DNA of 64,000 nucleotides from Cymodocea nodosa (lineage: Eukaryota; Streptophyta; Magnoliopsida; Alismatales; Cymodoceaceae). Shown in pieces: positions 22,403 to 52,891 of this stretch. The position numbers were made by a program, and so were the translations under genes. Positions within the stretch are counted from its first letter, which is position 1, and each line of letters starts with the position of its first letter. The notes below the pieces were generated by a model. That model did not search any database, was not told the origin of the DNA, and saw nothing but the letters and a program-made list of their open reading frames with translations. The DNA is taken from contig CM072339.1 in assembly GCA_036874045.1 (NCBI GenBank), forward strand, positions 3,975,501 to 4,039,500, given 5' to 3'.

Positions 22403-22411
22403 GAGGAGCTG

Positions 22412-30323: not shown

Positions 30324-31260
30324 ATTGTATTGTTCGTCTACTTGTGTAAAATTGTATGATGTACTTGTAATGTAATTGATTCATATTAATGAATGTAAAT
30401 TTTTCAGATGCAATTTTCATATATGTTTTGAATGTGAAATGAATGGAATTTATTGAATATTATTTAATTTGTGGAACATTATGAATGAATATGTAACAGA
30501 TTTACAATTTGCTGAATGACAAGATAACTGCTTAAAAATTTCTGCATGTTGTAAGGTAAAATGTAAATTCTGCATAACATAAAATGACCTGCAAGTTAAA
30601 TCTTTATATCATGTTCAGATTTAAAAGTATTTTAATTAGAATGATGCATTAATGACATAGATTTAACTTAATTTCAGTTAGCAGAATGAAGAAGAAAAAA
30701 AGAACAGAGAGGAACTTACGAGAGTAAAACCTAGAAGTTGCTAAGTGTTAACTCAACGAAATAAGTCCGTTGAGTTAAACGTAACTCCACGAGGTCAGTA
30801 ATATAATATAAGGTCACTCCATTGAGTTATCAGTAACTCAACGAAGTTAGTTCGTGGAGTTAGCAATAGTAACCGACTGTATTCTGTTGAGTTATTTATA
30901 ACTCAACGAGGTTAGTTCGAGGATTAAGCAAAACGGTTATTCTTTTAACCAAGAACGAAACTTCATCGGTTTAGCGGTTACCAAAATTTGAAATTAGTAG
31001 TGGTACACGTACCCATAAAAATAAAAACCACGATGCACGTTGCAAGCCACGTTCTTGCAATGAGATTTATTCACTTTATGAATGTGTAGTATATATATAA
31101 AACAGAATGTTATTTACAAGTTACCAACACTTTTAAAAGAAAGGAGAATGCGTTGGAGGAATTGGAAGGAGAAGCAGCTGATTCAACTTCATTCAACAAC
31201 AAATATTTATTGAATGGAAAGCTTCAGACTGGTATGTAATTAATCTTCTGTTATTTACTT
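30324..31260. other. Third-ORF / gag spacer of Athila B
   Basis: This is AT-rich noncoding sequence. 30745-30930 holds an array of CCGTTGAGTTA and CGTGGAGTTA inverted repeats. The same arrangement occurs at 45669-46653. Confidence 0.75.
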
Positions 31261-31450
31261 ATGAGCACATAGACTCGTTCTCTAAGTACTAAACGATTAG
31301 TAAGAACACCTACCTAGGAATTTTCATTGTAGAGGAGTACTAAAAAATTTTCTAAACTAAACTTTAACGAAATTCTTTGGGGTGTAGCTAACCTTTCTTT
31401 AAAAGAGAACGTAGAGATCGCTGCTCCACTAGAAAAACCATTAAAACTTA
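31261..31450 (+). pseudogene. Gag N-terminal remnant of Athila B, downstream of the third ORF
   Basis: An ATG at 31261 opens text matching the gag of Athila C at 46654 (STKRLVRTPT, FNEI, GVANLSLKEN). TAG stops are present. At about 31450 a deletion removes the rest of gag and the region where Athila C has the F-box frame; sequence resumes with GTGAGCCACCAAAGGCATAG, the equivalent of about 49040. Confidence 0.8.
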
Positions 31451-32835
31451 TTCTAGGAAACCAACTGGCTTACTTGTGAGCCACCAAAGGCATAGGAGCC
31501 TGGGTTCCACACAAAATACTGATTTATTAATATCTGTTAAATGTTATTTTGTTATATATTCTGCGTTTATCTGTGAATGAAAAGTTTTTCAAAAAAAAAA
31601 TCAGAATATGCAGAAAGAGATACAAATGAAACAAGGTATGTAACCAATTACTCATCTTGAATTTTAAATCAACAAACCTGTAGCCATGCTTGCTTCAATT
31701 ACTATACTTATTGTCAAATCATTTACATTGAGAACAATGCAAAATGTAGGTATGGTGGGGGAGGTAATTGAAGTAACAGCCATGTAAGTTTGTTAATTAA
31801 AGGAATTAAAATGGTACTGCAAGGTTTTGAGGAAATTGAAAATTTTTATGAACTTACTGTAACTATCCGATATTGAGACTGTAAAATTTTTATAAACTAT
31901 AACTGCTTGAATGTTATATTTAAAAGGCTATATAAGATGCTATTGAATTTACTATTTATGCAAATCTAGATATAGTATCTTATGTTTTTTTTGAACTTCA
32001 TGAATTTAACAATTTCACGATTTTAAAATGAAATCAGAATGCTTAATGAAAAATCAATAAATTATCTGAAGTCTTGAAGGAGCTGAGATATGAATTCTAA
32101 ATTAAATGAAACACATATGATTAAATATACATTTAATTTGACTGATTGAACTTGTAGAATGATTTATGTGTAGATCTTATTAAACTACAGAAAAAGTATG
32201 AGCCTATTGTTATGGATTCATATTTTCAGTAAATGATAGAAGCAGGACTATATGAGATTGGTGTTTTACTACATCTGTATTAATGAAATACATACATATA
32301 TAGTATGTGATTAATGTTTTGTTTTGTGCTTGTGTTGTAAAAAAAAAAAAAAACATATACTGTACTGAAAAGATACAAGTGTTTTGTGAAATACAGATAT
32401 CTTATGAATCGAGTATATTTTTTGTTATCTAGAATTGCTGAAATATGAATCTGGAATTGACTTTTAAAGTTGTTTAATGGAGATACAATTCTTTATTCTA
32501 CTTGTCTTAATCAGATTGAGTTGGATTGTACTTTGATTCGTATGTTGTTGAAATTTCTTCTAGAAATCTTATTGAAAAATTTAGGATGATAGATGATGAA
32601 AAGAAGAACAAACGATAATATAATTAACACTTATGTGATGATGATATACTTTGTATGTAATTTGCATATATTCTAAGTATATTTGCAGGTTGATTACTGA
32701 AACATATAGAATATATTTTTTATGCTAAACAGAAGAAAAAAGAAATGAGAAGAATTAATTCTAGCACTTTTAGAAAGACCAATTAATTAGATCTCAGTTA
32801 GCTAAGGGACTACCAAAATTTAGGTATGGGGGAAG
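31451..32835. other. 3' spacer of Athila B up to the polypurine tract
   Basis: This is AT-rich noncoding sequence matching 49020-50688 of Athila C, but without the 230-bp block found there. It ends in TATGGGGGAAG, the polypurine tract, directly before the LTR. Confidence 0.8.
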
Positions 32836-35057
32836 TGTTTAGAATGAAAAGGTGCATATTATTAACGGTTAAATGATGGTTAATTGCATAATATTTAGCT
32901 TATCATATAAGAATTAAGCCATTATGTTATAATTGCAATGTTATATGCTTTAATTGAAGAATCTACTTAATTTGGGGAAATTAATGTTAATTTAGTACAT
33001 TTCTAAACTGTTGATAAGTTGCAGGCTGTGAAATTCTTAAGTATCCTAATTTTCTGATATTTCGGACAGTTATGTTTAACATACCGAACATATTCGAACA
33101 GTTATGTTTAACAAACCGATTGCTGAACAGTTATGTTTTGACAAAATATTTTATTATTTCCTAAAGTACCTGTGTCGAAACCATAATGAATGACTTAAGT
33201 GAACTTTCAGTGAGTTATCTATAACTATCCGAAATTGCAGTTGGGCATCGAATAGTTATCCCTATAACTCTCTGAAATCTCTTTTTATTTATAAAATAGG
33301 TGAGGACACGTGTCATGTTCAGGGAAAGTGACTTAAGTGGATTTTAGTGAGTTATCTCTAACTATCCGAAATGCATCTCAGCATCGGATAGTTAGACCTG
33401 TAACTCTCCGAAATGTTATTTTATGATTAAACTGCTGCTGACACGTGTCGAGATCTGGTAGATTTACTTAAGTTATATATCGGTGAGTTATTTGTAATTA
33501 TCCAAAATGCATCTAAGCATCGGATAGTTAAGTTTATAAGTATCTGAAATGCACCTGAGCATCGGATAGTTAAATTTATGCACATGTTGAATTTAAATGC
33601 TTTAGTATATCACGTGTGATGCACATGTTTAACTCGTTAAGTTAGCATAACTGTATGCATTGAGTTACATGAATACACACTAAGGCAACACGTAACGTTA
33701 GCAGCTTATTTCTTTATATTTTCTAATATGCCACTATAGCGGTTGCAGGAACAAACAGTTGGAAGAGAAAAAAACCACGTTTGTACGTATCGCACAGGGA
33801 AAGAAATCATCGCTGTTGATACGAATGAAGGAAATCCAATCGACCATTCAAGCAGAAGCAGTTACTACTGAAGAAATATAAAAGAAAAGAAGAAAAAAGA
33901 AGAAGGGTGTGATCGATGGGCGGACCGTGTGTGTAGAGGAGGATCAACGTTGCAATTCTCTGAAGTACCACACCAACCATCATCATCACTACCATAATCA
34001 CCAACCATCGGAGGTCTGTGAGAATACTTTCTTGATGTCGGGTCGATTTCGAGCCAAACACAGTGCCTGATAACCATTGTGAGGAGTGATCGCGTCGCGG
34101 GAAGGGAGGCCATTTTCACCAAGCGCCAACTCATATTCCAGGAGATCGTAAAGCTTTTAGCCTTGGCTTCAGGTTGATGCCTGTATGTTGAAGAGGAGAT
34201 CATCTTGCAATTCTGGACTCGTGATTCTATAGGGAGAGGAGACAGAATTGTAAGTGGTTAATTTTCAGTAGTGTAATCACGTTGCAAGTAGTGTCAGAAG
34301 TATTTACTATCAAGTGAGATTACTTTACATTTCACCTTTCGCCCATTTCCATATATTAAAACAAAAATACCAAAAACAATTTATCTATGTTTGTATATTG
34401 TATTTGAGTGTTGTATTGTTTGTGTTGTATCATTATTAATGTTATCTTTGTTAGTGTTGTGATTGTTTTATGTTGTTTTAGATTTACAGCTTACTGAAAT
34501 TGGTTCGTTCAACAGACTTAAAGATTTTAATGATTACGATTTGAATTATCTGAATGTTAGTATTGCCTAATGATAAATCCAATGTTTACTAACATTAAAG
34601 AGCTTAATTGATGTTATTTACAATCTGTAGAATCGCCCAATGGTTGGCCGAATTCCTTTGTAAATAGCAGTATTAAAAAGAAAAAGACAGGCTCATGGAG
34701 TTAACTTAAGTCCACGAGGTTAGTCCGTTGAGTTAGCCATAACTCAATGAACTTTGTCCGTTGAGTTAACTGTAATTCAACGGAGAGCTTATTGAATATA
34801 TAAATTTGATTGTTAACAAACGAATAGTTCTCAAGTTCTTCAGCAATTCTCTGTGGGATCGACCTATACTTGCACACTAATACAATAGACACTATGCACT
34901 TCCAGTTAAAGTACAAATTGGAATTAATATCTAAATTGTATTAAAGGTTGTTTGTTTACTTCTAAAAGAGAGAATAGGCATAAAGATAAATTAACTAAGT
35001 AAAAACAGAAGTAACAAATCCAAGTTTTTCTAGTGTAGTGTTGGGAAAACACAAACA
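32836..35057 (+). repeat. Athila B 3' LTR, complete
   Basis: It starts TGTTTAGAATGAAAAGGTGC after a GGGGGAAG polypurine tract and ends ACACAAACA (2222 bp). It contains CG-GAT-AGTTA palindromes at about 33050-33560, a CG-TTA-AGTTA word at about 33640, and CCGTTGAGTTA repeats at 34690-34785. Short frames inside it are not conserved as proteins between LTR copies. Confidence 0.9.
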
Positions 35058-35815: not shown

Positions 35816-37947
35816 TGTTTAGAATGGAAAAGTGTATAATATTAAGGGTTAAATGTTGGTCAATTACATAATATTTAGCTTATCATATGAGAATTAAGCT
35901 ATTAGATTATAATTACATTGTTATATGCTTTAATGAAGGAATTTGCATAATTTCAGGAAATTAACGTTAATTAAGTATATTTCTGAACTGTTAGTAAATT
36001 ATAGGCTTTGAAATTCTTAAGTATCCGAATTTTTTGTTATTTTGGAGAGTTATATTGCATGTACCAGACAATTATATTTTTAACGATAGAAGAATATTTT
36101 ATTATTTTATTACATCAATGCATGACTTAAGTGGATTTTCGGTAAGTTATCTAGTAACTATCCGAAATGCATTTGAGCATCGGATAGTTAAGGTTGTAAG
36201 TATCTGAAATATCTGAACTCATTAAGTTAGAATTATGCACGTATTGAATTTAAATGCTTTATTATGTCACGTGAGCTGTACATGTTTAACTCGTTAAGTT
36301 AGCATAACTATATGCGTTGAATTACTTGAATATAAGTTAAGGTAACATGTTTTGTTATGTAGAAATAGGAAAAGTAAACTTTCAGATAGTTAATGTTTCG
36401 TTTTAGTCGAAGAGTTATGTTAAAAACTCGTATAGTTAAGTTATCTACACATGTGTTTTAATGTTTTAAGTTTTCACGTGTGTTCCATGTGTGTTTGGTA
36501 ATGAAAAATTGAAGAGTTAGATAACTATTCAAGTTTTATACACATTGATAGATAACTGTTCGAGTTTTATACACATGGATGGATAATTATTCGAGTTCTA
36601 TAAAATGACTAACGAACAGATAAGTTTTCTTGTTTAGTCATGTGTTACGCAAGTGCAAGAACTAGAAGAGTTACAAGAAGATACAAGGAAAACCACGATT
36701 GCACGTATCATGTAGGAATTCACTTGTGGAATGAAGAAGAAATCACCATCGTTGATATGAATGAAGAAAATCCAACTGATCATCTAAGTAGAAGTAGTTA
36801 CTATAGAAAGAAATATAAAAGAAGACGAGAAAGACGAAGAAAGTGTGTGTGTTGAGGTGGAGGACCGCGCTAACTGCAAGTAGCATCGAAAGTTCCCTAA
36901 AGCTCCACACTACCACCAAAATCACCAACTATCGGAGGTTTGTGAGAATACTTTCTTAATGTCGAGTCGATTCTGAGGCAAACATAGTGACTGACAACCA
37001 CTGTGAGGAGTGATCGTGTTGCGAGAAGGGAAGCCATTTTCACCAAGCACCGACTCATATCTCAAGTTTCTAGCCTTGGTTTCGAGTTGATGCTAGTATG
37101 CTGAAGAGGAGATCATCTTACAATTTTGGATTCACGATTCTATAGGGAGAGGAGGCAAGATTGTAAGTGATTAAGTTTTCAATGATGTAATCACGTCGCA
37201 TGTAGTGATGGAAGTCTTTATTGTCAATAGAGATTTTTACATTTCACCTTTCATTCATCTTCAAGAACATATCAAAACAAAAATACCAAAAACAACAAAT
37301 TATCTGTGTTTACATTTAGTATTAAAATATTGTATTGTTTGTTTTGTATCGTGATTAATGTTATCATTGTTAGTATTGTGAATATTTTATATTTGTTTGA
37401 TTTAGAAAATAGAAAATAGTTTTACAGTTTACTAAAATTGACTCGTTCCAGATACTTAAAGATTTTAATGATTACTATTTGAAATATCTGAATGTTAGTA
37501 TTGCTTAATGATAAATCTAATATTAACTAACATTAAAGAGCTTAATTGATGTTATTTACATTCTATGGAATCGCCCAATGGTTGGCCGAATTCCTTTGTA
37601 AATAGTAGTATTTAATTGGAAAGATAGGCTCATGGAGTTAACTTAAGTTCACGAGATCAGTCCGTTGAGTTAGTCATAACTCAACAAACTAAGTCTGTTG
37701 TGTTAACTATTACTCAACAGAGTGCTTACTGAACACATTTATACTCTAATATAAAAATCAGAACAATACACAATTCTTACTCAATCTCTATGGATCGACC
37801 TGTACTTGCAGTTAAAATACAAATTAGAATTAATATCTAATTTGTGTGAAAGGTTGCTTGTTTACTTCTAAAAGTAATTATTGATATAAGCATAAAGACA
37901 AATTAAACAAGCCTAACAAACAGAAGTAAGCAAATCCAAGACAAGCA
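35816..37947 (+). repeat. Athila C 5' LTR
   Basis: 2132 bp, TG...CA. CG-GAT-AGTTA words lie at about 36150-36190, CG-TAT-AGTTA at about 36430, and CCGTTGAGTTA repeats at 37628-37725 near the end. It is clearly related to 50689-52886. Confidence 0.92.
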
Positions 37948-37952
37948 ATTTC

Positions 37953-37971
37953 TACCACCATTGTTGGGGAT
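37953..37971 (+). promoter_or_regulatory. Decayed Asp-tRNA-type primer site of Athila C
   Basis: TACCACCATTGTTGGGGAT starts five bases after the LTR and matches the usual site at 13 of 19 positions. Nearly all changes are C-to-T or G-to-A. Confidence 0.6.
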
Positions 37972-38051
37972 TGAGAAGCTAAGCAACTGTGAGTGTTGTT
38001 TTGTTTTAATAGCAGCAGAAGTGTTGTGTGTTTTATTCTATAATTGAGAAT

Positions 38052-41000
38052 ATGGCATTTGCTTATGCTTAAAGATTTCTGAAGCATGTAGTTAACAAAT
38101 GTGAATTCTGCAATTTGGAAGGTCAAGACATCTCTGATTGTTTGAAACTAAGACGATTGCAGATGATTAGATCACATGAACAACAAATGAATTATAATCA
38201 ATATAATAGAGCTGAGTATGAGAATCCTATAGTTTACCCAACTGATGGTCAGTTTAGAATGTGTAATATAGAAATTTGGGATATGTATGACAGACTAGAG
38301 CGTAGCTTAAAGTAAAACATGGACAAACTAGAATAATACATGTGTTAACAACAAGAAGTCAACCAATTAAACTATAGGGAAGAATATTCAGAACCTAAAA
38401 TTGATATCATTTATGAAACTGAAAAAACAATAATGGAAATCGATCAAAAATTGAATGCAATGAGATTAGATGATCTAGAAAGAAAATTAAAAGCATTGGA
38501 TGAATTTACAAGTTATGCAACAGGAAAATACAAATGAAAACTTCAATGTTACAGATTTGCATAATTTACAAGATGTACAGACAAAAGAAAATACCAATGC
38601 AATAGAATTTAAAGAATACAATTTAAGACTAAAAATAGTTGAAGATCTTAATCATGCAAATGAAATACAAGAATATAATGAAAGTAACAAAAATCTGGAA
38701 GATGTATGTATAACATTAAGATTTGGAACTGATATACCACCAAGAATTCAAAAAGAAAGTAATGTGAAGGTGGATAAGAACAAAAATCAAAATGATAATG
38801 AAAATGTAATATCTGAAAACATAGAAATCAATGAAGAAAAATTTGAATCTGAAAATGAGACTAAAAATGATCAAACAAATCAAATGAAAGAAAAAGAATC
38901 TTTTAAATCACAATCGTTAGTACCCTATCCTGAAAGATTACAACAAACATTTCCTAAAAAATAAGAAAAAATTAGAGAAATTTTTGAAAAAGTACAAGTT
39001 AACATTCCTTTGTTAGACTTATTGTATAAAATACCACATTGTGCTAAATTTCATAAGGATTGGTGTACTAAGAAAAGAGAGCAAAAAGCTTTAAGGAAAG
39101 TCTTTTTAGCTGAGTAAAGTAGTTCCCTATTTCTACCACAAATTCCTAAGAAGTTATCTAATCCTGGAATCTCTGTTATATCATGCACCATAGGAAATAC
39201 CATTCTAGAAAGAACCTTAATAGACCTAGGTGTAGGTATAAATGTTATGTCGAGTGATATATTTGCATCCTTAGGATTAGAAGGCTTAATCCCTACTAGG
39301 ACTGTTATTCAATTAACTGATAGAAGTATAAGATACCCTAAAGGAAAAATAGAGAATGTGTTAATTAAAATCAAAAATTTCATATATCCTATTGGTATTG
39401 TGATTTTGGATTCTCAACAAATTAAGCATCAGAATCATGATACATCTTTAATTTTGGGAAAATCATTCTTAGCAACATCAGGGACTGTTATAAATTGTAA
39501 AACTAGAGTAATGAAGTTAGCATATGGTAATGAGGATACTCAATTAAACATTTTCAAACTAGAAAAGTTTCAAGAGATAAAAATGTCCTTACATATTATA
39601 GACTTTTTAGAGGATGAAGGAGATATGCTAGATGAGGTGATTCAAGAAGAATTAAATAGGCAACTAAATTCTGAAACTTTAAAAGAAAGTGAAAGCATAA
39701 ATGTAGAAGGAGATCAAGAAGAGATTAATATAGAAAATGAAAATGTTCAATTAAGAGCTCTAGCTTCTGATGGTCAATATTTAGATTTAAAACCTTTACC
39801 TCCTGAATTAACCTATATATTTCTAGAAGAAAAACAAACATGTCCAATCATTATTACTTCAAATTTAAAAGAGGATCAAAATTTTAAATTAAAAGATGTA
39901 GTAAAAACTTATGAAAAGGCAATAGAATGGACTATGATTAATATAAAAGAGTTAAGTGCGACTTTATGTTGTCACCACATATATTTAGAAGAGAATGCTA
40001 AACCAGTTAGAATTCCTGTGAGGAGATTAAATCCAAACCTAAAAGAAGTAGTCAGGAAGGAAATAGTGAAATGGTTAGATAATGACATAATTTATCCGAT
40101 TTCTAATAGCTCATGGGTTAGTCCAATCCATGTAGTTCCGAAGAAATCAGGATTAACAGTTATTACGAATGAAAGTCAGGACTTGATACCTACTAGAATT
40201 CAATTAGGCTGGAGAGTGTGTATAGACTATAGAAAGCTGAATGTTGTGACTAGGAAAGATCATTTTCACTTACCTTTTATAGATCAAATGCTAGAAAAAT
40301 TAGCAGGGCAAGAATATTTTTGTTTCCTAGACGAGTATTCGAGATATAACCAAGTTCTAGTAGCATTAGAGGATCAAGAGAAAACAACTTTCACCTATCC
40401 TAATGGAACTTATGCTTTTAAGAGAATGTCATTCAGATTATGCAATGCACCGGCCACCTTTCAAAGGTGTATGCAGGGCATATTTACTAGAATGACTGAA
40501 GATTTTTTAGAAATATTTATGGATGATTTTACTATTTAAGGAACTTCATATGAAGTGTGTTTAAACAATTTAGACCAAGTATTAAAATACTGTGTGGAAA
40601 AAAGTCTAGTTCTAAATTGGGAAAAATGTCACTTCATGGTTAAACAAGGAATAGTCTTAGGACATGTTGTTTTAAAGAAAGGGTTGGAAGTAGATAAAGC
40701 TAAAATAGAAATAATTTTGAAAGTACCAGAACCTAAATCAATAAAAGATATTAGATCATTTCTAGGACATGCTAGATTTTATAGAAGATTTATTGAAGAT
40801 TTTAGCAAAATAGCTAAACCTTTAACTAATCTATCAAAAGATGTCCCATTTAACTTTGATAAAAATTGCAAAGAAGCATTTTTCAAGCTTAGAACTAGCT
40901 TAATTTCAACTCCTATAATACAAGCACCTGATTGGAGACATCCATTTGAATTAATGTGCGATGCATCTGATTTTACTATAGGAGTAGTGTTGGGACAGAA

Positions 41001-42572
41001 GATAGAAAAATCTCTTAGAGTGATTATATAACTACTTTAAATGATGCTCAAGTTAATTATATAACTACTGAAAAAGAGTTGTTAGTTGTTGTGTTGGCCT
41101 TAGAAAGTTTAGATCATATTTGATTGGAGCTAAAGTGATAGTATACACGGATCATTCAGCTTTAAAACACCTAATAGCAAAGAAAGAGACTAAACCTAGA
41201 TTGATCCGATGGATATTATTGTTATAAGAATTTGATCTAGACATTAAAGATAAAAAAGGTTGTGAGAATGTAGTAGCAAATCATTTATCAATATTACAAA
41301 TAGAAAAATCAAATATTGAAATTAAGGATAATTTTCCTGATGAATAGTTAATGACCATCAACACAATGCCTTGGTATGCAGACATAGTTAATTACTTAGT
41401 TACTGGTTTAACACCTAAGGATTAGAATAGATAGAATAAGAAATTGTTCTTTTTAAGAGTAAAATATTACCATTGGGAAAACTCATACTTATTTAAGAAA
41501 TGTCTTAATATGGTTTTAAGGAGGTGTATTCCAAAAACTGAATATCAGAGCATATTGTAGTTCTACCATGACCAAGCATGTTGAGGACATTTCTTAAATA
41601 AGTATTTCTTATAGAATATCAAAGAGGAATATGATACCTCTGAATCCTATTGTTGAAGTGGAAATCTTTGATGTGTGTGGAATAGATTTTATAGGTCCAT
41701 TTCCTATGTCTAATCAATTTAATTATATATTGTTGGGGGTGGATTATGTATCTAAATGTATAGAAGTTATTCCTACAAAAACTAATGACAACAAAGTGAT
41801 AATACATTTTATAAGAATTAATATAATTACCAGATTTGTAATACCTAAAGCTATTATCAGTGATAGAGGAACTCATTCTGTAATAGAAGTTTTGAAGCCT
41901 TAATGAAGAAATATGGAGTAAATCACAAAATTGCAACATCATATCATCTGCAAACAAGTGGACAAATAAAAAGTGCAAATTAAGTTAATCTTAGAAAAAG
42001 TAGTAAATACTACTAGAAAAGATTGAGCTAATAGATTAATAGATGCACTTTGGGCTTATAGAACTACTTATAAGACAAGTTTAGGTATGTCACCTATTAG
42101 GCTAGTATATGGAAAAAGTTGTCATTTACCAACTGAAATTGAACATAAAGCTTATTGGGCATTAAAAACTCTAAACACGAATTTAAATCAAGCTGCTGAA
42201 AATAGGAAAATGCAATTGATTGAATTAGAAGAGTTTAGGAATGAAGCTTATTCGAAAACTATAAGAGAAAAAGAGAAAATGAAGTTCTGGCATGACAAGA
42301 AAATTATTCCAAAAACCTTTGAAATAGGACAAGAAGTATATCTTTACATGACTAGACTCCATAACCATCTAGGAAAATTAAGATCTAGATAGGCAAGACC
42401 TTACATAATTTGAAATATTCATTCCTATGGAGCTATTGAAATTGAAAATCCTAAAAATCAGAATATATTTAAAGTAAATGAACAAAGACTTAGACCTATT
42501 TTGAAAATACCAAAAAGTTCCTTTGGAATTATAGAAGAAGTAAGAGTAAAGGACTACTCGAGCTTTACTTAG
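38052..42572 (+). pseudogene. Athila C zinc knuckle, protease, RT, RNase H, integrase
   Basis: This polyprotein copies RNA to DNA and integrates it. The start MAFAYA is followed by a zinc knuckle (CEFCNLEGQDISDC; its His position is now Gln) and a Lys/Asn-rich linker. Protease lies at about 39130-39540: VISCTIGNTILERTLIDLGV keeps the Asp-Leu-Gly triad. RT is in an open frame at 39247-40539: GWRVCIDYRKLN, FCFLDEYSRYNQV and the FMDD polymerase site in LEIFMDDFTI, with a stop just after. RNase H (40555 on) has LMCDASDFTIGVVLGQK and [11 protein letters not shown]. Integrase has CGIDFIGPFP and ISDRGTH, then a shift at about 41875 before the Glu region. The C-terminal domain runs to 42572. The open RT frame of 430 codons is the best preserved gene of the element. 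Confidence 0.92.
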
Positions 42573-43415: not shown

Positions 43416-45668
43416 ATGATGCCAATGTTCTGGGAGGAAGCAGTTGACACAACAAGATTTCTCAAAGAATCTGAAGAATGGCGTACAAGACAGAGGATCA
43501 GAAATACAACACGGGAAAAAGAACTACAAAAGGTAGAATCTGACATTTTCTACTAGAGGAAAGTTTTAGTAGATTTAGGCATGAAAATACCTCAGATTAT
43601 AGAAACAAGAATCAAAGTAGCTACAGAAGTTGCATTAAATAGAGAGAGAAAAAGTAGACCAAATAATGAAGTTGCCCTAGAATTGATCGAACGTAAGTCC
43701 CAACTATGGTTCAAAAGACGCATTAGTGGACATTCGCAGTGGGCAATCTGGGAACAACAGAGGAAAGGAAATGAAGAACATGCAATTGAAGAACAAGAGG
43801 AACCGACTATTGAAAGACCTATCTTTGAGGAACAACAGCCAGGACCATCCATTCCACCGCCAAGGCCGTTAGGAAGAGCAGCATTTTTTGGGCCTTCTAC
43901 TAAAGAAGAATTAAGAGAATTTGAAGAACTGGTTTGAGTTGGAAAAAACCAAGGAGAACTAAAAGATTTGGCAATAGCTAAAGCACATTTGGTGTTTGAT
44001 GTACTTTACAAAAGGAGGGCTGTAGAAAAGTTGAAAGCCCAATACAAAGTTAAAGTTGAACAGCATCAAGAAGCCACTACCATACCTACTACAAGAGAAG
44101 CTAAAGCTGGTCCTTCAAGACCAATAACTATAAAAAGAGTAAAATAGGAAGAGCCAGTACTTGTGGCTCGAGAGCTTGTAGAGCCCATTTTAGTAGATTT
44201 AATCTTAGAGGAGGAAGAGGAAGACCAAGCACAATTAATTAGAAGAAGGAAAGGAAAAGAGATAGCGCCTGAACATAAAGAAGAGATTAAATCTGAGATG
44301 CAAATATCAATAAGGCCTGTAGAGCTAATTTTTGTAAACCTGCTATCCGATTCTAATGAGTAGGAGCAACAGTAGCAAGAGCAAAGAGAAGAAGAAAAAT
44401 AGGCTGAAACTAATCTACAGCTTGTACAAATAGAAGAAACAGAAATTAGGATAGAAGCTAATTTGCCTGTGACTCCATCCCAATCTACTATAGAATCAGA
44501 AAGAACAGTGACAATGCAGATTGGTAGTCAGGAGGAAGAAGAAAAAGAAGAAACTAAATAAGAAGCTAAACAAAAGCATATGGAACAAAAAGGAAATATC
44601 TCGACAGATTCCACTAAAGAGCAAAAGACTCTTCAACAAATTTTGGAAAGAATTCAAGAGAGAAGAGTGGAGAGTTCTGCCGGCTCAACACCACAGACAG
44701 AAGTAAAAGCAAAAAGGCTAGAATCTTTGGATCATTTCCAACAAAATCAAGTTCAGCACATGGAAGAGGAAATTTAAGAACAAACCCCTCTAGAACAACA
44801 AATTCAAATTCCTGACCTGACTGATGCAATAGTTTTGGATGAAGTACACTTTTGGAGTTAGGAAGTATATAATAAATATCAAGAGATTAGGGGTTATGAT
44901 ATTATTTACAGTAGATCAGTAAACTAGGACAGTATGTAGGAAATTAAAGAATTGTTTGAGTTCCAAGGTCTACTACAATTTATTTCTCAACAAAAAGGGC
45001 ATGCAGTATATGAAAATCTAGTACCTGACTTTTATGCAAACTTGAGAGAGGAAGAAGGAAAATCAATTTCCAACGTGGAGCAAGCTGATGTACAAATAAC
45101 ACCAGAGCTTCTCCACAACATTTTAAGATTGAAAAATGAAGAGAAAGAAATTTTGGAAAGCACAACTACAATTGAGTGGACAGAATAGGAAATCAAAGAC
45201 AGTTTAGCTATCAATCTTGGTGTGTCATTATTAAATAGACTGAAGTACTTAAATGGTAAAGCATACATGGTAGCTAACATTTTGATTAAAAATGTCTACC
45301 AACGACAAGGTCATGATATTGAACTAAGTCAATTTGTCAAATGGGCCACATATGCAATTGTGAATAAAATCCAAATTAACTAGTGTCAAGTCTTCTTGTC
45401 CAAGATTAAATCTGCAAAGAAGAAATTATTTTAGGGAGATTTGATACCTATATTGATGGTGGACTGTATTGACTTCACGAAATGGACATCTAAAAGGATG
45501 AAATCAAGAGCCATTTCAGTGAAGGAATACAGAAACTACAATGTTGTAGCTACTGAAGTACCTATACCATTTGGAGACATTATTGGAGCTGTGGATCGGA
45601 TAAATCAATTAGAGCAACAACTAGAAAAACTCCAGAAGGAAGTAGATTAACTTAGGAGAAATGACTAA
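43416..45668 (+). pseudogene. Athila C third ORF (envelope position), full length with stops
   Basis: About 750 codons, starting MMPMFWEEAVDTTRF; function unknown. The N half is charged and coiled-coil-like. A Glu-rich middle has repeats of the form EEEEEDQAQL. The C block (44830-45540) has IKELFEFQGLLQFISQQ, VPDFYANLREE, ADVQITPELLHNILRL, KAYMVANILIKNVYQRQGHD, YAIVNKIQIN and KRMKSRAISVKEYRNY, then a coiled coil. It stays in one frame almost throughout, but about 15 stops, mostly TAG, interrupt it (for example 44145-44147, CAG in copy 1). It resembles unclassified plant transposon proteins that I recall, and clearly matches the copia ORF at 11524. Without a signal or membrane segment it is unlikely to be a true envelope. 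Confidence 0.87.
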
Positions 45669-46653
45669 TTGAATTGTTCGTCTACTTATATTTATATTGA
45701 AAAATATTTGACTAAATGTAAATGTAACTATTCATATAAATGAATGTATGAATTTCAGATGTTTTTACATTCGTGTTTGAGAATGTATGATATAATTGAT
45801 GAACTACATTGAATATTATATAATTATTTGAACAATGTGCAAGACTGTTTAAAAGATTTACAAATTTTATGAATGACATGGTTAAATGCATGATAATTAG
45901 TTAATGCTGAAAATATCTGTATGCTAAAAAGTAAAATGTAAATTCTGCATAATAGGAAATGAATTGTAAGTTAAAAATGCATATAAAGTTCAGATTTAAA
46001 TGAGTTAGATTAGAAACTTCATTAATGACATGTATTTAACTTTATTTAAGATGACAAAATGTAGGAAAAAATATATATATATAGAAGTTAATACGAGAAG
46101 TAAGTTTTCGAAATTTGCTAAGTGTTAACTGAATGGAGTAAGTTCGTTGAGTTAACCATAACTCTACGAGGTCAATAATAAAAAATAAGGTCACTCCGTT
46201 GAGTTAATTGTAACTCAACGAGGTTAGTTCGTGGAGTTAGCAAAATAGTAACCGAAGCTAGTCTGTTCAGTTAACTGTAACTCAATGAGGTTAGTTCGTG
46301 GATTAAGATGAATAGATATTCTTTTAGCCACAAACGAAACTTCATGGGTTTAGTGGTTACTGAAATTTAAAATTAGAAGTGGAACACATATCCATAAAAA
46401 TAGGAACCACACTACACGTTACAAGACACGTTCTTGCAACGAGATTCATTTGCTTTATGGACATGCATTATAAATATAGAATAGATTGTTATTTACGAGT
46501 TACCAGCACTTTTAAAAGAAAAGAAAATTTGTTGGGGAACTAGAAGGAGAAGCAGCTAATTCAACTTCATTCATCAACAACTATTTACTGAAAACAAAGT
46601 TTCACACTGGTATGTAATTAATCTTCTACTATTTTACTTTATGTTAAGAGTTT
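45669..46653. other. Third-ORF / gag spacer of Athila C
   Basis: This is AT-rich noncoding sequence with a CG-N3-AGTTA array at 46125-46305 (CCGTTGAGTTA and CGTGGAGTTA forms). The last 100 bp before the gag ATG are conserved with 31160-31260 and include an ACTGGTATGTAATTAATCTT word that resembles a splice donor. Confidence 0.7.
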
Positions 46654-48001
46654 ATGAGCACATGGATTCATTCTCCTAGCACTAAAAGATTAGTAAGAAC
46701 ACCTACACAGGATTCTTCAACACAGAGACATACTGAAGTATTTTCTAAATTAGACTTTAACGAAATCCTTAGGGGTGTAGCTAACCTTTCTTTAAAAGAG
46801 AACAAAGATATGGCTGCTTCAATAGAGAAACCATTAGGAGAAATTCTGTATCCTGAATTAGTTGATGAACCTTTATGTATTCAATTGCCAAACTTTGAGA
46901 GAGATAGGTTTGAACTGAAATCGAATTATATTAGTCAATTGCCACATTTTCATAGAATAGAAAGAGAGGATGCCTAATATTTCCTTAGAGAATTTAACGA
47001 AGTTTGTCAAATGATGAAAATGTTGAACATGAGTATTGATGCTATTAAACTTAGATATATCCCTTTTGCTTTAAAAGACACCTAAGAGATGGTTATATAC
47101 TATGTCGCCTCATTCAATTTCTACATAGACTGAATTTTGCTCTATTTTTTTGGAAAAATATTATCCAACACATCAAACGATTAAAAAGAAAAAGGAAATA
47201 TTAATGTGTAGCCAAAAATAGGGAGAATCATTTTCGAAATATTTTGAAAGATTTAAAGATTTACTAACTCAATGTCCACATCATGCAATGGGTAAAGCAC
47301 AATTAATAGGTATACTTTATGAAGGCACAGATGTTTCAACAAAATCTTTATTAAAATCTACTTGTAAGAATGGATTTTTAAAACTATGCAGTGAAGAAGT
47401 ATAGGCATATTTAGAAAACTTTGCAAAAAGAACTGCATAGTGGGAAAACTCGGCTGAAGTTATTACAGATAAAAGAATATTGCCAAAGGGAATGCATGAA
47501 ATAGATTCAAGCACTATGCTTAAAGTTAAATTAACTGAATTAACAAAGAAAATAGAAGAGTTATCATTAAATCAAAAGTTAGCAGAAAAGAATGCAAATA
47601 TTAATGACTTAGATATTATTTATGCTAGAAACTAGAAAGATAACTTTGGAAATTCTTATAACCCTAATTGGAGAAATCATCCGAATCTATCTTGGAGAAA
47701 CAATAATTTCTAGGGAGGAGAAAATATAAATGACAAAAATATAAGTTATGAAGCATTAATTGAACAATGATTTAGAATAGAGAAATTAGAAAAGATAATT
47801 CAATAATTAAACAATCGCCTAGATCTTGTATTTGGAAATGTTGTCATTCAAAATCAAAATAGGAATAGAAATATACCCCCTAGATAGAATGAATCAATAG
47901 AAGTTAGACCTACAGGAGGATTGCCAATTCAAGTAGTACCTAACCTTGTCAATAGAGATGTTAATGAAATTAATACCTCCTATGGGAGGAAAGTTGAATG
48001 A
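46654..48001 (+). pseudogene. Athila C gag (capsid domain), downstream of the third ORF
   Basis: Gag forms the particle. The start MSTWIHSPSTKRLVRTPTQ leads to the Athila-type signature LCIQLPNFERDRFELKSNYI, then a gag domain that crosses a frameshift near 47080 and reads on through EKYYPTHQTIKK, FSKYFERFKDLLTQCPHH and ILYEGTDVSTKSLLKS. The C-terminus has YNPNWRNHPNLSWRNNN, as in typical Athila gag. No zinc knuckle is present within it; that motif lies 8.6 kb upstream at 38100. TAG and TAA stops occur at about a dozen points. A 5' remnant in the same relative place in Athila B (31261) shows that the position is a family trait. Confidence 0.88.
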
Positions 48002-48222
48002 AGCAATATAACTAAAGTAAGTATGTATAATATAGTAAGTAGAAAAATATAAAAAGAAAAAAATGTGTAAGTTTAATTGTAGTTAGTAATATCGTAGAGT
48101 TATTACTTAACTCAATGAACTTAGTCCGTTGAGTTATGACCTAACTCCACGAGGGTATGTAAGTAGCCATGTTAATTTTATCTCGGTTAAATTTTTGTTT
48201 ATGTTATACAGAATCACAATAG
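48002..48222. repeat. Gag / F-box gap with palindrome pair
   Basis: 48088-48156 has TCGTAGAGTTATTACTTAAC and CCGTTGAGTTATGACCTAAC words, the CG-N3-AGTTA family again. A strong donor-like GGTATGTAAG (about 48155) and an acceptor-like TTATACAG (about 48211) precede the F-box ATG. Confidence 0.6.
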
Positions 48223-48837
48223 ATGGAATTGATGAAATTACCACTAGATGCACTAAGGGAAGTACTAAGTAACCTGTCAACTAAAGATCTATGCAGATTG
48301 TGTTGTGTATCAAAGGAAATCAAAGACTGTGTCAGAGAAAAATATTTTCATGGATTACAAGTTGCAAAAATGACTAAGATTAGAGATGGATTTTTATGAA
48401 AGTGATTTAATTGTAGTTCAATTAGCTATGAATATATGAATATGGAAGAAACTGCTGGAATTCCACCTAATACATTAGAAGAAATAGATCATATTATGGG
48501 GATAGACGAAGGATTAATTATTTACAGAACCAAACCAATGTATGCAATTCTGTTACCCGACAATTGATTAGAAATCTTATCACAAGAGAAGAATGGAATA
48601 TAGGAAGACCTAATAGATTTGAAGTACCAACTGAAAATTGTGGGTTAGCTTTAACATTTTCTAATAAAAATTTATGAAATAGATGTAGAAATAAAATCAG
48701 CTACATTATCTTGGAACAGAAGAGGATCTCTTTCTATATTTCAATTCATTAATGGAAATACACTCATATTTAGTATTGATAACATACTGCAAGTTTACAA
48801 GTTAAAAAATAAAGCAAACTACATTAAAATAAATTAA
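48223..48837 (+). pseudogene. F-box protein reading frame carried by Athila C
   Basis: F-box proteins recruit targets to SCF ubiquitin ligases through Skp1. Residues 6-40 match the F-box consensus closely: LPLDALREVLSNLSTKDL, then RLCCVSKEIKDCV. The rest (about 165 residues, with EEIDHIMGIDEGLIIYRT and SLSIFQFINGNTLIFSIDN) suggests alternating beta strands, as in substrate-binding parts, but I cannot name the family. The frame keeps register for 204 codons with no indel; six stops interrupt it (48397, 48403, 48565, 48601, 48646, 48652). It lies inside the LTRs on the same strand as gag. Athila B is deleted across this position. It could be a captured host gene or an element gene that acts on host proteins; I infer neither firmly. 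Confidence 0.72.
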
Positions 48838-50688
48838 TAGTAAGAAGAATTATGCCTAAAAAGTTTGTTTGGACTAACATGTTTATTCCATTTGTTACTA
48901 CTTTTCAATCATGTTCTTAAATTGTGATTCTATGTTGTTAATGTTGTGTGTATTCTGCATTTATTTTTAAAAAAGAAAAGAAAAAACAAAATATCAATCC
49001 AGTTTGTTAGTATCTGTCTTGGGAAACCTAGTTTGCTTGTGAGTCACCAAAGGCATAGGATCCTAGGTTTCACACAAGACACTGAATTAACAATTTATGT
49101 TTTGTTATATATTCTACTTTTATTCGTGAATGGAAAGTTTTTCAAAATCAAAAATCGGAAGATATTGAAGGAGATACAAAAGAACAAGGAATGTAATTGA
49201 TTACTTATCTTGAATTTAGATTTAAACTCAGTTCATGGAGTTATTCATTAACTCAACAAATTAAGTTCGTTGAGTTAGGTGTTAAGTCAACGAAGCAATA
49301 TTCCTGCCTGCTAACATTTACTGTATTTACTGTAAAATCTTTTACATTGAGAACAATGCAAAATGTAGGTATGGGGGGGAGGTAATTAGATTAAAAGCCA
49401 AATAATTTTGTTAATTAAAGGAATTAAAATGGTATTGCAAAAGTTTTGTAGAAATTGAAAAAAAAAATTTTATGAATTTGTTGAAACTATCCAATAATTG
49501 AGACTATCAAATTTTTAAGCATTGTAACTACTTGAATGTTATATTTATAATCTTATATAAGATGCTACAAAATTTTACTATTCATACAAATCTAGATATA
49601 GTATCTTATGTTTTTGCTAAATTTTATGAGTTTAATAATTTCACGATTTTAAAAAAAAAACAAAATGCTTAATTGAAACTTAGTAAATTATCTAAAATCC
49701 TGAAAGAGCTGAAATGTTGATTTTTGGATTAAATGAGACGCATATGAACAAGGATACATTTAATTTGATTGATTAAACTTGTAGAATGATTTATGTGTAA
49801 ATCTTATTAAACTACAGAAAAAGTATGAGCTTTTTGATATGGATTCATATTTTCAGTAAATAATAGAAGCAAGACTACATGAGATTTGTGTTTTATTGCA
49901 TCTGTATTAATGAAATACGTATATATACTATGTTGAAAAGAAACAAGAGAAAAAACTTTAAGAGTTTATTGACTTGTTTGATCATGAACCTTTTGTACTT
50001 GAGCAGATAGGTATGTAAGGATTGTTGACCTAAAAAAAGACTCTTTAAATCTGGCAACCTAAGATCCTGATCAGATCTGGGATTGTTGATTGAAAGCTCG
50101 ATACATGGGTACACTAGAAAGCTCTTGTATAATTCAAGCTTTTCAAATTAACTTTTATAGTACAAATATGCATATACTGTTTTGAAAAGATAAAAGTGTT
50201 TTGTGAAATACAGAAATCTTTTGAATCAAGTATATTTTCTGTTATCTAAGATTGCAGAAGTATGAATCTAGATTAGACTTTTGAAGTTGTTTATTTGAGA
50301 TACACTTCATTATTCTACTTGTTTTAATTATATTGAATTGGATTGTGTTTTGATTCGTATGTAGTTGAAATTTATTTTGGAAATCATATTGGAAAATTCA
50401 AGATAATAGATGTTTGAAAAGAAGAAAAAATGATAATATAATTACCACCTATATGATGCTAATATATTTTGTATGCAATTTACATATGTTTTAAATATAT
50501 TTGCAGGTTGAAGAAAAAAAAAATAATGTTAAAATAGATTACTGAAAAATACAGAATATCTATCTAGTAATCTAATTTATGTATTTTGAAGAAGAACAAA
50601 ATGAAGAATTAATTCTAGAACTTTAGAAAGACCAACTAGTTAAATCTTAGTTTACTAAGGGACTAGCAAAATTTAAGTATGGGAGAAG
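48838..50688. other. 3' spacer of Athila C with palindromes and a polypurine tract
   Basis: This is noncoding sequence. A CG-N3-AGTTA group lies at 49225-49296, the copia-like block at about 49955-50160, and a GGGAGAAG polypurine tract at 50681-50688 directly before the LTR. The remainder matches 31470-32835 of Athila B. Confidence 0.8.
49955..50160 (+). repeat. Copia-spacer block inserted in Athila C
   Basis: This is the reverse complement of 14640-14830 at about 90 percent identity by eye. The Athila B equivalent (about 32300-32360) passes from one flank to the other without it, so it is an insertion in C. Confidence 0.85.
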
Positions 50689-52886
50689 TGTTTAGAATGG
50701 AAAAGTGTATAATATTAAGGATTAAATGATGGTTAATTACATAATATTTAGTTTATCATATGAGAATTAAGCCATTATGTTATAATTACACTGTTATATG
50801 CTTTAATGAAGGAATCTGCATAATTTCAGGAAATTAACGTTAATTAAGTATATTTCTGAACTGTTGGTAAATTACAGGCTTTAAAATTCCTAAGTATCCA
50901 AATTTTCTATTATTTCGGAGAGTTATATTGCATGTACCAGATAGTTATGATTTTAATGATAGAAGAATATTTTATTATTTCCAGGAGTACACGTGTTGAA
51001 ACTTCAATGCATGACTTAAGTGATTTTCAGTAAGTTATTTGGTAACTATCTGAAATGCATCTTAGCATTAGATAGTTAAGGTTATAAGTATCCAAAATAT
51101 CTGAACTCGTTAAGTTAGAATTATGCATGTGTTGAATTTAAATATTTTATTATATCATGTGAGCTGCACATGTTTAACTTGTTAAGTTAGCATAACTATA
51201 TGCATTGAGTTACTTGAATATACATTAAGGTAACACGCTTTGTTATGTAGAAATAGGAAAAGTAAACTTTCAAATAGTTAATGTTTCATTTTAGTCAAAG
51301 AGTTATGTTAAAAGCTCATATAGTTAAGTTATCTACACGTGTGTTTTAATGTGTTTTAATGTTTTAAGTTTTCACGGGTGTTCCATGTGCGTTTGGTAAT
51401 GAAAAATCAGAGAGTTAGATAACTATTTGAGTTTTATACATATGGATAGATTACTATTCGAGTTTTATACACATGGATGGATAACTGTTCAAGTTTTATA
51501 AAATGACTAACGAACAAATAAGTTTTCTTATTTAGTCATGTGTTTTGCAAGTGCAAGAACTAGAAGAGTTACAAGAAGATACAAGGAAAACCACGATTGC
51601 ACGTATCACGAAGGAATTCATTCATGGAATGAAGAAAAAATCACTATTGTTGATATGAATGAAGAAAATCCAATCGATCATCTAAGCAGAAGCAGTTACT
51701 AAAGAAAGAAATATAAAAGAAGAGGAGAAAGATGAAGAAAGTGTGTGTGTTGAGGTGGAGGACCGTGCTAACTACAGGCAGTGTCGGAAGTTCCCTAAAG
51801 CTCCATACCACCACCAAAATCACCAACCATCAGAGGTCTGTGAGGATACTTTCTTGATGTCAAGTCGATTCTGAGCCAAACAAAGTGACAGACAACCATT
51901 GTGAGGAGTGATCGCGTCGCGGGAAGGGAAGCCATTTTCACCAAGCACCGACTCATATCTTAGGAGATCGTAAAGCTTCTAACCTTGGTTTCGGGTTGGT
52001 GCTAGTATGCTGAAGAGGAGATCATCTTACAATTTTGGATTCACAATTCTATAGGGAGAGGAGGCAAGATTGTAAGTAATTAAATTTTCAATGGTGTAAT
52101 CGCATCGCATGTAGTGACGGAAGTCTTTACTATCAATAGAGATTTTTCCATTTCACCTTTCATTCTTCTTCAAGAACATATCAAAACAAAAATACTAAAA
52201 ACAACAAATTATCTATGTTTACATTTAGTATTAAAGTGTTGTATTGTTTGTTTTGTATCGTGATTAATGTTATCATTGTCAGTATTGTAAATGTTTTATG
52301 TTTGTTTGATTTAGAAAATAGAAAATAGTTTTACAGTTAACTGAAATTGATTCATTCCAGATACTTAAAGATTTTAATGGTTACTATTTGAAATATCTGA
52401 ATGTTAGTATTACTTAATGATAAATCTAATATTAACTAACATTAAAGAACTTAATTGATGTTATTTACATTCTGTGGAACCACCCAATGGTTGGCCGAAT
52501 TCCTTTGTAAATAGCAGTATTTAACTGGAAAGATAAGCTTGTGGAGTTAACTTAAGTCCACAAGATCAGTCCGTTGAGTTAGCCATAACTCAATGAACTA
52601 AATCCGTTGTATTAACTGTAACTCAACAGAGTGCTTATTGAACACATTTATACTCCAATATAAAAATCGAAACAGTACACAATTCTTACTCAATCTCTGT
52701 GGATCGACCTGTACTTGTACACAAATACAATATACACTATGCACTTGTAGTTAAAATACAAATTGGAATTAATATCTAATTTGTGTGAAAGGTTGTTTGT
52801 TTACTTCTAAAAGTAATTATTGATATAAGCATAAAGACAAATTAAACAAGCCTAACAAACAAAAGTAAGCAAATCCAAGAGAAGCA
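50689..52886 (+). repeat. Athila C 3' LTR
   Basis: 2198 bp, TGTTTAGAATGG ... AAGCA, partner of 35816-37947. CCGTTGAGTTA repeats lie at 52545-52632. Confidence 0.92.
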
Positions 52887-52891
52887 ATAAC

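What the first reader, a model, noticed from the sequence alone, without database searches (positions are those of the whole stretch)
48223..48837. F-box reading frame inside an Athila retrotransposon
The frame begins with a near-textbook F-box (LPLDALREVL ... KDL ... RLCCVSK) and stays in register for 204 codons between gag and the 3' LTR. A plant retroelement with its own SCF adaptor would be unusual. Polerovirus P0 uses a short F-box-like motif to destroy Argonaute, so a counter-silencing role is one hypothesis; simple capture of a host gene is the other. Six stops but no indels suggest decay by point mutation after a coding past.
Basis: partly seen in the sequence, partly recalled or inferred. 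Interest (0 to 1): 0.88.

Follow-up and report, generated by a model that had tools for sequence, protein, structure and literature searches.

The report
F-box gene carried by plant retrotransposon
A large family of plant jumping genes carries, as a regular part of its own genome, a plant-type gene of the kind that marks proteins for destruction, and selection kept that gene working while the family spread.

Summary
The F-box is real (PF00646 E 2.5e-12), but the window copy is a wreck: a 437-bp internal deletion plus single-base frameshifts, not "no indels". In the source genome (374.6 Mb) the same frame belongs to an Athila-like element family. All 113 scored matches (of 6,845 candidates) cover essentially the whole ORF, 18 stop-free. 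12 of 12 loci picked by gag alone carry it at the same place, one truncated. Stop-free copies encode about 378 aa: F-box plus a plant F-box-associated (FBA, TIGR01640) domain. Changes on internal tree branches concentrate at third codon positions (137/109/226, p 5e-11); terminal-branch changes are even (653/654/653); adjacent non-coding DNA shows no bias. Selection therefore kept the protein while the element multiplied. A second, rarer family carries a homologue (34-42% identity) directly after integrase, so the association is old. Best reading: a captured plant F-box/FBA gene serving the element as an SCF substrate adaptor. Its target is unknown; counter-silencing is untested. In ten library searches, one paper mentions a single F-box gene flanked by LTRs; none listed describes an element family with a maintained F-box ORF.

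The parts
48223..48921 (+). Broken remnant of the element's F-box/FBA accessory ORF (378 codons in intact copies).
48232..48348 (+). F-box domain (residues 4-42)
   Evidence: Pfam PF00646 E 2.5e-12
48675..48675 (+). Scar of a 437-bp deletion that removes most of the FBA domain in this copy
   Evidence: the extra stretch is present in most of the other copies listed; one other copy (L009) has a deletion of similar size with other breakpoints
46648..48010 (+). gag (capsid part), broken, upstream of the F-box ORF; end approximate
   Evidence: PF03732 E 1.6e-5 on 47222-47401; homologous ORF in L004 E 1.1e-4, 22.8 bits, just below cut-off 24.1
44940..45647 (+). PF20167-like ORF (putative plant transposon protein), between pol and gag
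   Evidence: E 1.7e-5, 25.2 bits, below curated cut-off 45
38050..42569 (+). 5' ORF: degenerate zinc-knuckle-like motif (read by eye), protease, reverse transcriptase, RNase H and integrase region
   Evidence: RVT_1 E 5.7e-14 on 39118-40536; other domains read by eye and by homology
35816..37947 (+). 5' LTR of element B; TSD ATAAT at 35811-35815
37953..37970 (+). Primer-binding site; diverged here, TGGCGCCGTTGCTAGGGA in the C3 copy (assignment to tRNA-Asp recalled)
50677..50688 (+). Polypurine-rich tract before the 3' LTR
50689..52886 (+). 3' LTR of element B; TSD ATAAC at 52887-52891
   Evidence: LTR K2P 0.087
29163..35024 (+). Related copy A: same PF20167/gag/3' part but the segment equivalent to 46836-49022 (rest of gag and F-box) deleted; 3' LTR 32833-35024

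Best explanation
The window holds a decayed copy of an Athila-like LTR retrotransposon family whose regular accessory ORF encodes a plant-type F-box protein: N-terminal F-box and C-terminal F-box-associated domain. Shown here: the ORF sits at the same place in the sampled copies, is stop-free in a minority, and evolved under purifying selection while the family amplified, most strongly in the F-box. A homologue lies next to integrase in a second, diverged family. Inferred: an ancestor captured a plant F-box/FBA gene before the two families split. The protein binds host SKP1 through the F-box, joins an SCF ubiquitin ligase, and uses the FBA domain to bring a protein to the proteasome, to the element's benefit. 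Most likely target class (inferred, weakly held): a host factor that limits the element, such as a silencing or restriction protein. The element's own Gag or another replication protein is the next candidate.
For: F-box in 18 of 18 stop-free proteins, best E 3.3e-11. F_box_assoc_1 (TIGR01640) in 17 of 18 at E <= 0.01, best 1.3e-8. In the genome search 38 of the 148 listed matches are over the curated cut-off; 3 of these were fetched, two are copies of this family and one is the second family. Second-family homologue: 50.1 bits, cut-off 37.9. Own genome: 113 of 113 scored protein matches cover essentially the whole ORF at 85-100% identity (100 is the query itself), 18 without a stop. 12 of 12 loci picked by gag alone have the F-box about 1.37-1.40 kb downstream of the gag start, one of them (L095) only its first 108 bp. 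Second complete element C3:8406863-8423438 with the same order pol - PF20167 - gag - F-box - LTR. 40 of 40 scored candidates span LTR-PBS-5' ORF and 40 of 40 span the post-pol to PF20167 junction, the window's own copy counted in both. Selection: 59 copies, internal branches 137/109/226 by codon position (p 5e-11), terminal 653/654/653; internal transversions 30/17/44 (p 0.0025). 70 copies, internal 102/107/179, supported branches 21/24/43 (p 0.008). Controls on well-aligned copies: non-coding stretch after the ORF, 33 copies, internal 79/101/87 (p 0.25), with the F-box ORF of the same copies 68/70/113 (p 4e-4); gag, 34 copies, internal 55/27/57 (p 0.002). F-box domain internal 23/5/47. dN/dS of 15 intact copies 0.335 against 0.427 and 0.578 in the shifted frames. 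Start codon bases kept in 72, 72 and 71 of 72 copies. Second family: INT upstream of the F-box in 4 of 5 loci examined.
Against: No transcript, protein, SKP1-binding or target evidence is available. The B-family proteins whose scores were shown fall below the TIGR01640 cut-off of 37.9 (L021 29.0, L076 29.2, L041 31.2 bits), and FBA_1 is matched by only 5 of 18 at E <= 1. No host donor gene was identified, and no homologue was found at E <= 1 in the 5.8-billion-protein search, so host capture rests on domain type alone. dN/dS in shifted frames is also below 1, so the NG86 ratio alone is weak. Selection on the FBA part is weaker than on the F-box, and the tail is not significant. Terminal changes inside the F-box segment are themselves third-position-rich (72/65/109), so terminal branches are not purely neutral there or the tree is imperfect. 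The first control run included badly aligned copies (5 of 38 for the non-coding stretch, 4 of 38 for gag) and gave gag only p 0.054; one search is the cleaned rerun. Fitch counts treat the tree as known. The held copies were chosen by similarity, and 14 for being stop-free. Recombination between families is not excluded.
Confidence: 0.8

Rival explanations
1. Passive passenger: a host F-box gene fragment captured once and amplified with the element, without function.
For: Captured host genes in plant LTR retrotransposons are known in rice and sorghum (passage in PMC7264820). Thlaspi arvense has an F-box gene flanked by LTRs (PMC8764390, passages). Most scored copies are broken (95 of 113 with stops).
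Against: Third-position bias on internal branches, absent from adjacent non-coding DNA and with a codon-position bias also in gag; a 3-nt, frame-keeping insertion shared by many copies; a homologue at 34-42% identity kept over its length in a second family.
Confidence: 0.07
2. Counter-silencing F-box in the manner of polerovirus P0 or of plant FBW2: the protein removes an Argonaute or another RNA-silencing protein.
For: P0 of some poleroviruses targets AGO1 and has an F-box-like motif, and plant FBW2 regulates or targets AGO1 (abstract starts in the listing: PMC6593998, PMC2914764, PMC9035678). A retroelement gains from less silencing.
Against: No target evidence. The F-box/FBA architecture is that of a large plant family with many substrates (recalled). 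PMC6593998's abstract start says the autophagy pathway was shown to contribute to AGO1 degradation.
Confidence: 0.25
3. Self-regulation: the adaptor controls the element's own Gag or integrase (copy-number control or release of the preintegration complex).
For: The ORF lies next to gag in the major family and next to integrase in the minor one.
Against: Adjacency may be chance; no interaction data.
Confidence: 0.2
4. Gene conversion or domestication in reverse: a constrained host gene family derived from the element explains the third-position bias.
For: F-box genes are large, fast-evolving families in plants (recalled).
Against: Of 38 copies fetched by DNA match, 33 align well with the element's sequence after the ORF and 34 with gag before it; a host gene should lack both. 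No such gene was seen, but the lists are capped to best matches and intronless host relatives were not surveyed.
Confidence: 0.04

Closest known systems
Phalaenopsis Ty3/gypsy elements with a captured AlkB-type RNA demethylase (PMC9289625)
   Same: Plant gypsy-type family that fixed a host-type accessory ORF and kept it through several rounds of replication; a role against host surveillance was proposed there.
   Different: Different domain (2-ODD against F-box/FBA). There activity was shown in vitro; here only sequence evidence. Its screen of 121 angiosperm genomes reports 15 other non-canonical domains; 'F-box' does not occur in its main text (supplement not seen).
F-box 'LTR-gene' TaChr6G576 of Thlaspi arvense (PMC8764390)
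   Same: An annotated F-box-family gene flanked by LTRs.
   Different: In the passages seen it is one annotated host gene in an LTR context that was tandemly duplicated, not a regular ORF of an element family; its domain type and any neighbouring gag or pol were not stated there.
Additional/extra ORFs of plant LTR retrotransposons (env-like, PMD, Transposase_28, Athila ORF-1; PMC7264820, PMC6317226)
   Same: Sense ORF between pol and 3' LTR in a Tat/Athila-type element.
   Different: Those named in the passages seen carry other domains; 'F-box' has no occurrence in PMC7264820 and was not searched for in PMC6317226.
Plant F-box proteins with F_box_assoc_1 (TIGR01640)/FBA domain
   Same: F-box followed by FBA-type domain in one uninterrupted frame of about 378 aa.
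   Different: Carried in a retrotransposon, multicopy, below the curated FBA cut-off in the single major-family proteins whose scores were shown.
Polerovirus P0
   Same: A viral plant element with an F-box(-like) motif.
   Different: P0 was not compared by sequence here. Listed abstracts describe an F-box-like motif, whereas here a full Pfam F-box plus FBA-type domain is present.
Caenorhabditis F-box genes with a mariner HTH (PMC12062965)
   Same: Link between F-box genes and transposons.
   Different: Opposite direction: a host F-box gene captured a transposon domain (passages).

Membership tests
F-box protein | F-box domain over curated cut-off | tested here: met
   46.6 bits against 20.5 in the window; 18 of 18 stop-free copies match, best E 3.3e-11; second family 32.3 bits
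F-box protein | Binding to SKP1 and assembly into an SCF ligase | not testable with these tools
   needs binding assay
Plant F-box/FBA (TIGR01640) | F_box_assoc_1 domain over curated cut-off 37.9 | tested here: inconclusive
   Second family 50.1 bits, met; in the genome search 38 of 148 listed matches over it, two of them fetched and shown to be copies of this family; but L021 29.0, L076 29.2 and L041 31.2 bits, not met
LTR retrotransposon | Paired LTRs, TSD, PBS, PPT, gag, RT, integrase | tested here: met
   TSDs each match 4 of 5 bases; integrase by homology between copies and by eye, not by Pfam
Athila lineage | RT/RH/INT phylogeny placing it in Athila; no additional RNase H | not tested
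Athila lineage | gag upstream of pol (general layout of LTR retrotransposons) | tested here: not met
   gag capsid part lies after pol and the PF20167-like ORF in element B and in C3:8406863-8423438
Polerovirus P0-type silencing suppressor | Suppresses RNA silencing through AGO loss | not testable with these tools
   no functional data
Captured, selected accessory ORF | Coding constraint during amplification | tested here: met
   with non-coding and gag controls

The most novel reading that the evidence does not exclude
A plant retrotransposon lineage carries its own SCF substrate adaptor, held by selection across at least two diverged families, that removes a host defence protein such as a silencing factor: a retroelement counterpart of viral F-box counter-defence.
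Probability: 0.3. Interest if true: 0.92.

Novelty: new variant of a known kind. Interest (0 to 1): 0.73.

Why it matters
Fixing extra conserved domains is described as rare in plant LTR retrotransposons, and such domains have been used to read off host-element conflict (PMC9289625 abstract). An F-box/FBA adaptor kept under selection, with stop-free copies still in the genome, would give a direct handle on how an element may use the host ubiquitin system and which protein it needs removed. It also warns that genome annotations can count such copies as host F-box genes.

Tried and rejected
Tried without result. Protein database searches with the window frame (76 candidates) and with a stop-free copy (841 candidates): none at E <= 1. 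Viral-contig scans with two pieces and with the alignment: none. Pfam FBA_1 over the genome: no hit, but its control rang nowhere, so it says nothing. PDB by sequence: best E 0.32 (FBXO4), 1.8 and 1.1. Rfam on the window: none at gathering cut-offs. A conserved splice acceptor before the ATG was looked for: a T-rich tract and CAG are there but not more conserved than their neighbours, so no claim is made.

Considered and rejected. Copy A as a pre-insertion 'empty site': its gag breaks off mid-ORF, so it is a deletion. A pol-less TR-GAG-type element (name recalled): rejected because two complete copies contain pol. Chance F-box: E 2.5e-12, and present across the family sample. A shared deletion in the window copy and L009: the breakpoints differ, so they are separate events. 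Structure prediction of the intact protein was not attempted, because the tool lists which sources it accepts and genome-search loci are not among them.

Rows dropped: L009 was left out of the codon tests (large deletion), and L060 was dropped as identical to L021. L095 was left out because it is truncated. In one search 5 of 38 copies were dropped for the non-coding control and 4 of 38 for gag, for poor alignment; the unfiltered run is. Of 60 held copies aligned, 15 have neither stop nor frameshift over 378 codons, but 14 of the 60 had been chosen as stop-free, so the less biased figure is 18 of 113 (itself a list of best matches).

Full report
OBSERVATION. The frame at 48223-48837 (+) opens with an F-box: Pfam PF00646 46.6 bits, E 2.5e-12, residues 4-42; F-box-like 30.6 bits. 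It contains six internal stops. The claim of no indels is wrong. Peptides that belong to the same protein lie in another frame. Against a stop-free copy the window copy has lost 437 bp near 48675 and single bases near 48563 and 48832. The region is thus a truncated remnant of a longer ORF. One other held copy (L009) has a deletion of similar size with different breakpoints.

THE CARRIER. The frame lies inside a complete LTR element: LTRs about 35816-37947 and 50689-52886, TSD ATAAT/ATAAC, LTR K2P distance 0.087. That distance corresponds to roughly 3.4-6.2 million years at assumed rates of 1.3e-8 to 7e-9 per site and year (rates recalled; computed). The internal order is unusual. After the PBS come a degenerate zinc-knuckle-like motif (read by eye), protease, reverse transcriptase, RNase H and integrase (38.05-42.57 kb), then a PF20167-like ORF (44.9-45.6 kb), then gag (46.6-48.0 kb), then the F-box, then about 1.8 kb without a long frame, a polypurine-rich tract and the 3' LTR. 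A second complete element, C3:8406863-8423438 (16,576 bp, TSD GTTTG/ATTTG, PBS TGGCGCCGTTGCTAGGGA), has the same order. Of the scored candidates, 40 of 40 span LTR-PBS-5' ORF (4,059 first-look candidates; a 41st match is a short piece beside one of them) and 40 of 40 span the post-pol to PF20167 junction (3,525 candidates); the window's own copy is counted in both. Copy A in the window (29163-35024) lacks the segment equivalent to 46836-49022, but its gag stops mid-frame, so this is a deletion and not an empty site. Some neighbourhoods are rearranged: C5:11391200-11400500 shows F-box, LTR, then gag, and the C6 locus shows an LTR inside gag.

THE FRAME IN THE SOURCE GENOME. A DNA search with the window frame gave 77 matches from 40 scored candidates out of 4,421; most places carry about 430-440 bp that the window copy lacks. 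A protein search with a stop-free copy scored 113 of 6,845 candidates: all 113 match essentially full length at 85-100% identity and 18 have no stop. Of 60 copies aligned codon by codon, 15 have neither stop nor frameshift over 378 codons; 14 of these 60 had been fetched because they were listed as stop-free. To avoid choosing by F-box, I picked 12 plus-strand loci from a list of 150 gag matches and fetched the stretch about 1.3 kb downstream: 12 of 12 carry the F-box at the same offset, 11 over nearly the whole fetched part and one (L095) for only 108 bp. Eight gag/F-box pairs that I matched by hand from the capped lists lie on the same strand at start-to-start distances of 970-1,898 bp (minus-strand values not corrected for match length). 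The ORF is therefore a standing component of the sampled family.

WHAT THE PROTEIN IS. F-box in 18 of 18 stop-free proteins; FBA_1 in 5 of 18 (best E 0.0012) and FBA_3 in 1 of 18 at E <= 1. NCBIfam F_box_assoc_1 (TIGR01640) covers residues 113-334 (L021, E 6.1e-7, 29.0 bits, below the cut-off of 37.9) and is matched by 17 of 18 at E <= 0.01. Over the genome, 148 matches at E <= 1 came from 150 scored candidates (of 1,636) and 38 are over the curated cut-off. Of three of these fetched, two are copies of this family and one is new.

A SECOND FAMILY. The new one (L096, C7:17066000-17067800) is 42% identical over residues 4-105 and 34% over 110-377, with a homologous C-terminal tail and one frameshift. 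It scores 50.1 bits with TIGR01640 and 32.3 with F-box. Just upstream lies the C-terminus of integrase (65% identity over 34 residues). A genome search with its C-terminal part gives six further loci at 61-85% identity, all with stops, and then matches at 33-38%, several of them at coordinates of known major-family copies. INT lies directly upstream in 4 of the 5 loci examined (L096, L100, L101, L102; not seen in the 780 bp of L099). The F-box ORF is thus shared by two element families in which INT is about 45-66% identical in these matches. It was captured before they split, or moved between them by recombination, which I cannot exclude.

SELECTION. On a tree of 59 copies, changes on terminal branches are even over codon positions (653/654/653), as expected for decay after insertion. 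Changes on internal branches, which passed through active copies, are 137/109/226 (p 5e-11); transversions alone 30/17/44 (p 0.0025); branches with at least five descendants 61/34/89 (p 4e-6). With 11 diverged gag-sampled copies added (70 copies, codons 2-238): terminal 440/432/491 (p 0.1), internal 102/107/179 (p 6e-7), branches with support >= 0.9 21/24/43 (p 0.008). Controls: a first run on 38 copies gave the non-coding stretch 182/196/160 (p 0.16), the F-box ORF 82/76/123 (p 9e-4) and gag 116/86/117 (p 0.054), but 5 and 4 copies proved badly aligned. Without them the non-coding stretch gives 79/101/87 (33 copies, p 0.25) against 68/70/113 for the F-box ORF of the same copies (p 4e-4), and gag gives 55/27/57 (34 copies, p 0.002) against 72/79/112 (p 0.006). 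By region the F-box is most constrained (23/5/47), then the linker (19/21/35) and FBA (75/64/113); the tail is not significant (20/19/31). Terminal changes in the F-box segment are also skewed (72/65/109), so part of the terminal signal there is older than insertion or the tree is imperfect. Pairwise dN/dS of 15 intact copies is 0.335, against 0.427 and 0.578 in shifted frames; this measure alone would be weak.

HOW IT MOST LIKELY WORKS. Shown: a plant-type F-box/FBA protein was encoded and selected in the element. From established knowledge of SCF ligases: the F-box binds SKP1 and the C-terminal domain selects the substrate. Inferred: the element uses it to remove or modify a protein that limits it. 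Which protein is open. RNA-silencing proteins are candidates by analogy with P0 and FBW2 (abstract starts only, listing); the element's own Gag or integrase are candidates by position. I put about 0.25 on a silencing target and 0.2 on self-regulation.

KNOWN AND NEW. Accessory ORFs and captured genes in plant LTR retrotransposons are known (PMC7264820, passages; PMC6317226, passages; PMC11963269, passages; PMC11728184, passages; PMC9289625, abstract, passages and section 12). The last screened 121 angiosperm genomes and reports 15 non-canonical domains; its main text does not contain 'F-box', and its supplement was not seen. The nearest precedent found is one annotated F-box gene flanked by LTRs in Thlaspi arvense (PMC8764390, passages). 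Gene-capture surveys of rice, sorghum and maize, cited in PMC7264820, may hold others and were not read. In ten library searches (open-licence PMC only; two showed 6 of 48 and 10 of 59 papers) I saw no report of an element family with a regular, selected F-box ORF, judged from titles, abstract starts and the passages read. The survey of extra ORFs in plant Ty3/gypsy elements by Steinbauerova et al. is not held.

VERDICT. A real, selected F-box/FBA accessory gene that recurs across an Athila-like retrotransposon family; the window copy itself is dead. New variant of a known kind, with high interest because the target is open and testable.

Noticed in passing
window 38050-48010; C3:8406863-8423438: gag (capsid part) lies downstream of pol and of a PF20167-like ORF in two complete elements, while a degenerate zinc-knuckle-like motif stays at the 5' end: a permuted gene order.
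   Followed up: partly
G000 C2:8.75-9.72 Mb: Eleven F-box copies on one strand with near-equal scores, ten of them with a single TAA and several about 60 kb apart, suggest a large segmental tandem array.
   Followed up: no
window 22405-29166: An LTR is interrupted by a duplicated LTR-plus-pol segment (22982-23445 and 27979-28442 are 95.7% identical), a nested rearrangement in copy A.
   Followed up: partly
window 49217-49282, 48097-48160, 43099-43190, 46197-46285, 56270-56429: A short palindrome-like repeat recurs in both orientations (48097-48160 by eye); the one at 49217-49282 is absent from copy A, as a small inserted element would be.
   Followed up: no
window 3331-4321 and 4317-5307: Two 991-bp head-to-tail copies, 99.9% identical: a very recent duplication or an assembly artefact.
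   Followed up: no
L050 (C5:11391200-11400500): F-box, LTR, then gag in tandem: an LTR is followed almost directly by gag, perhaps a recombinant or pol-less derivative.
   Followed up: partly
window 48190-48222: A T-rich tract and CAG end 12 nt before the F-box ATG, a possible splice acceptor, not more conserved than its surroundings.
   Followed up: partly
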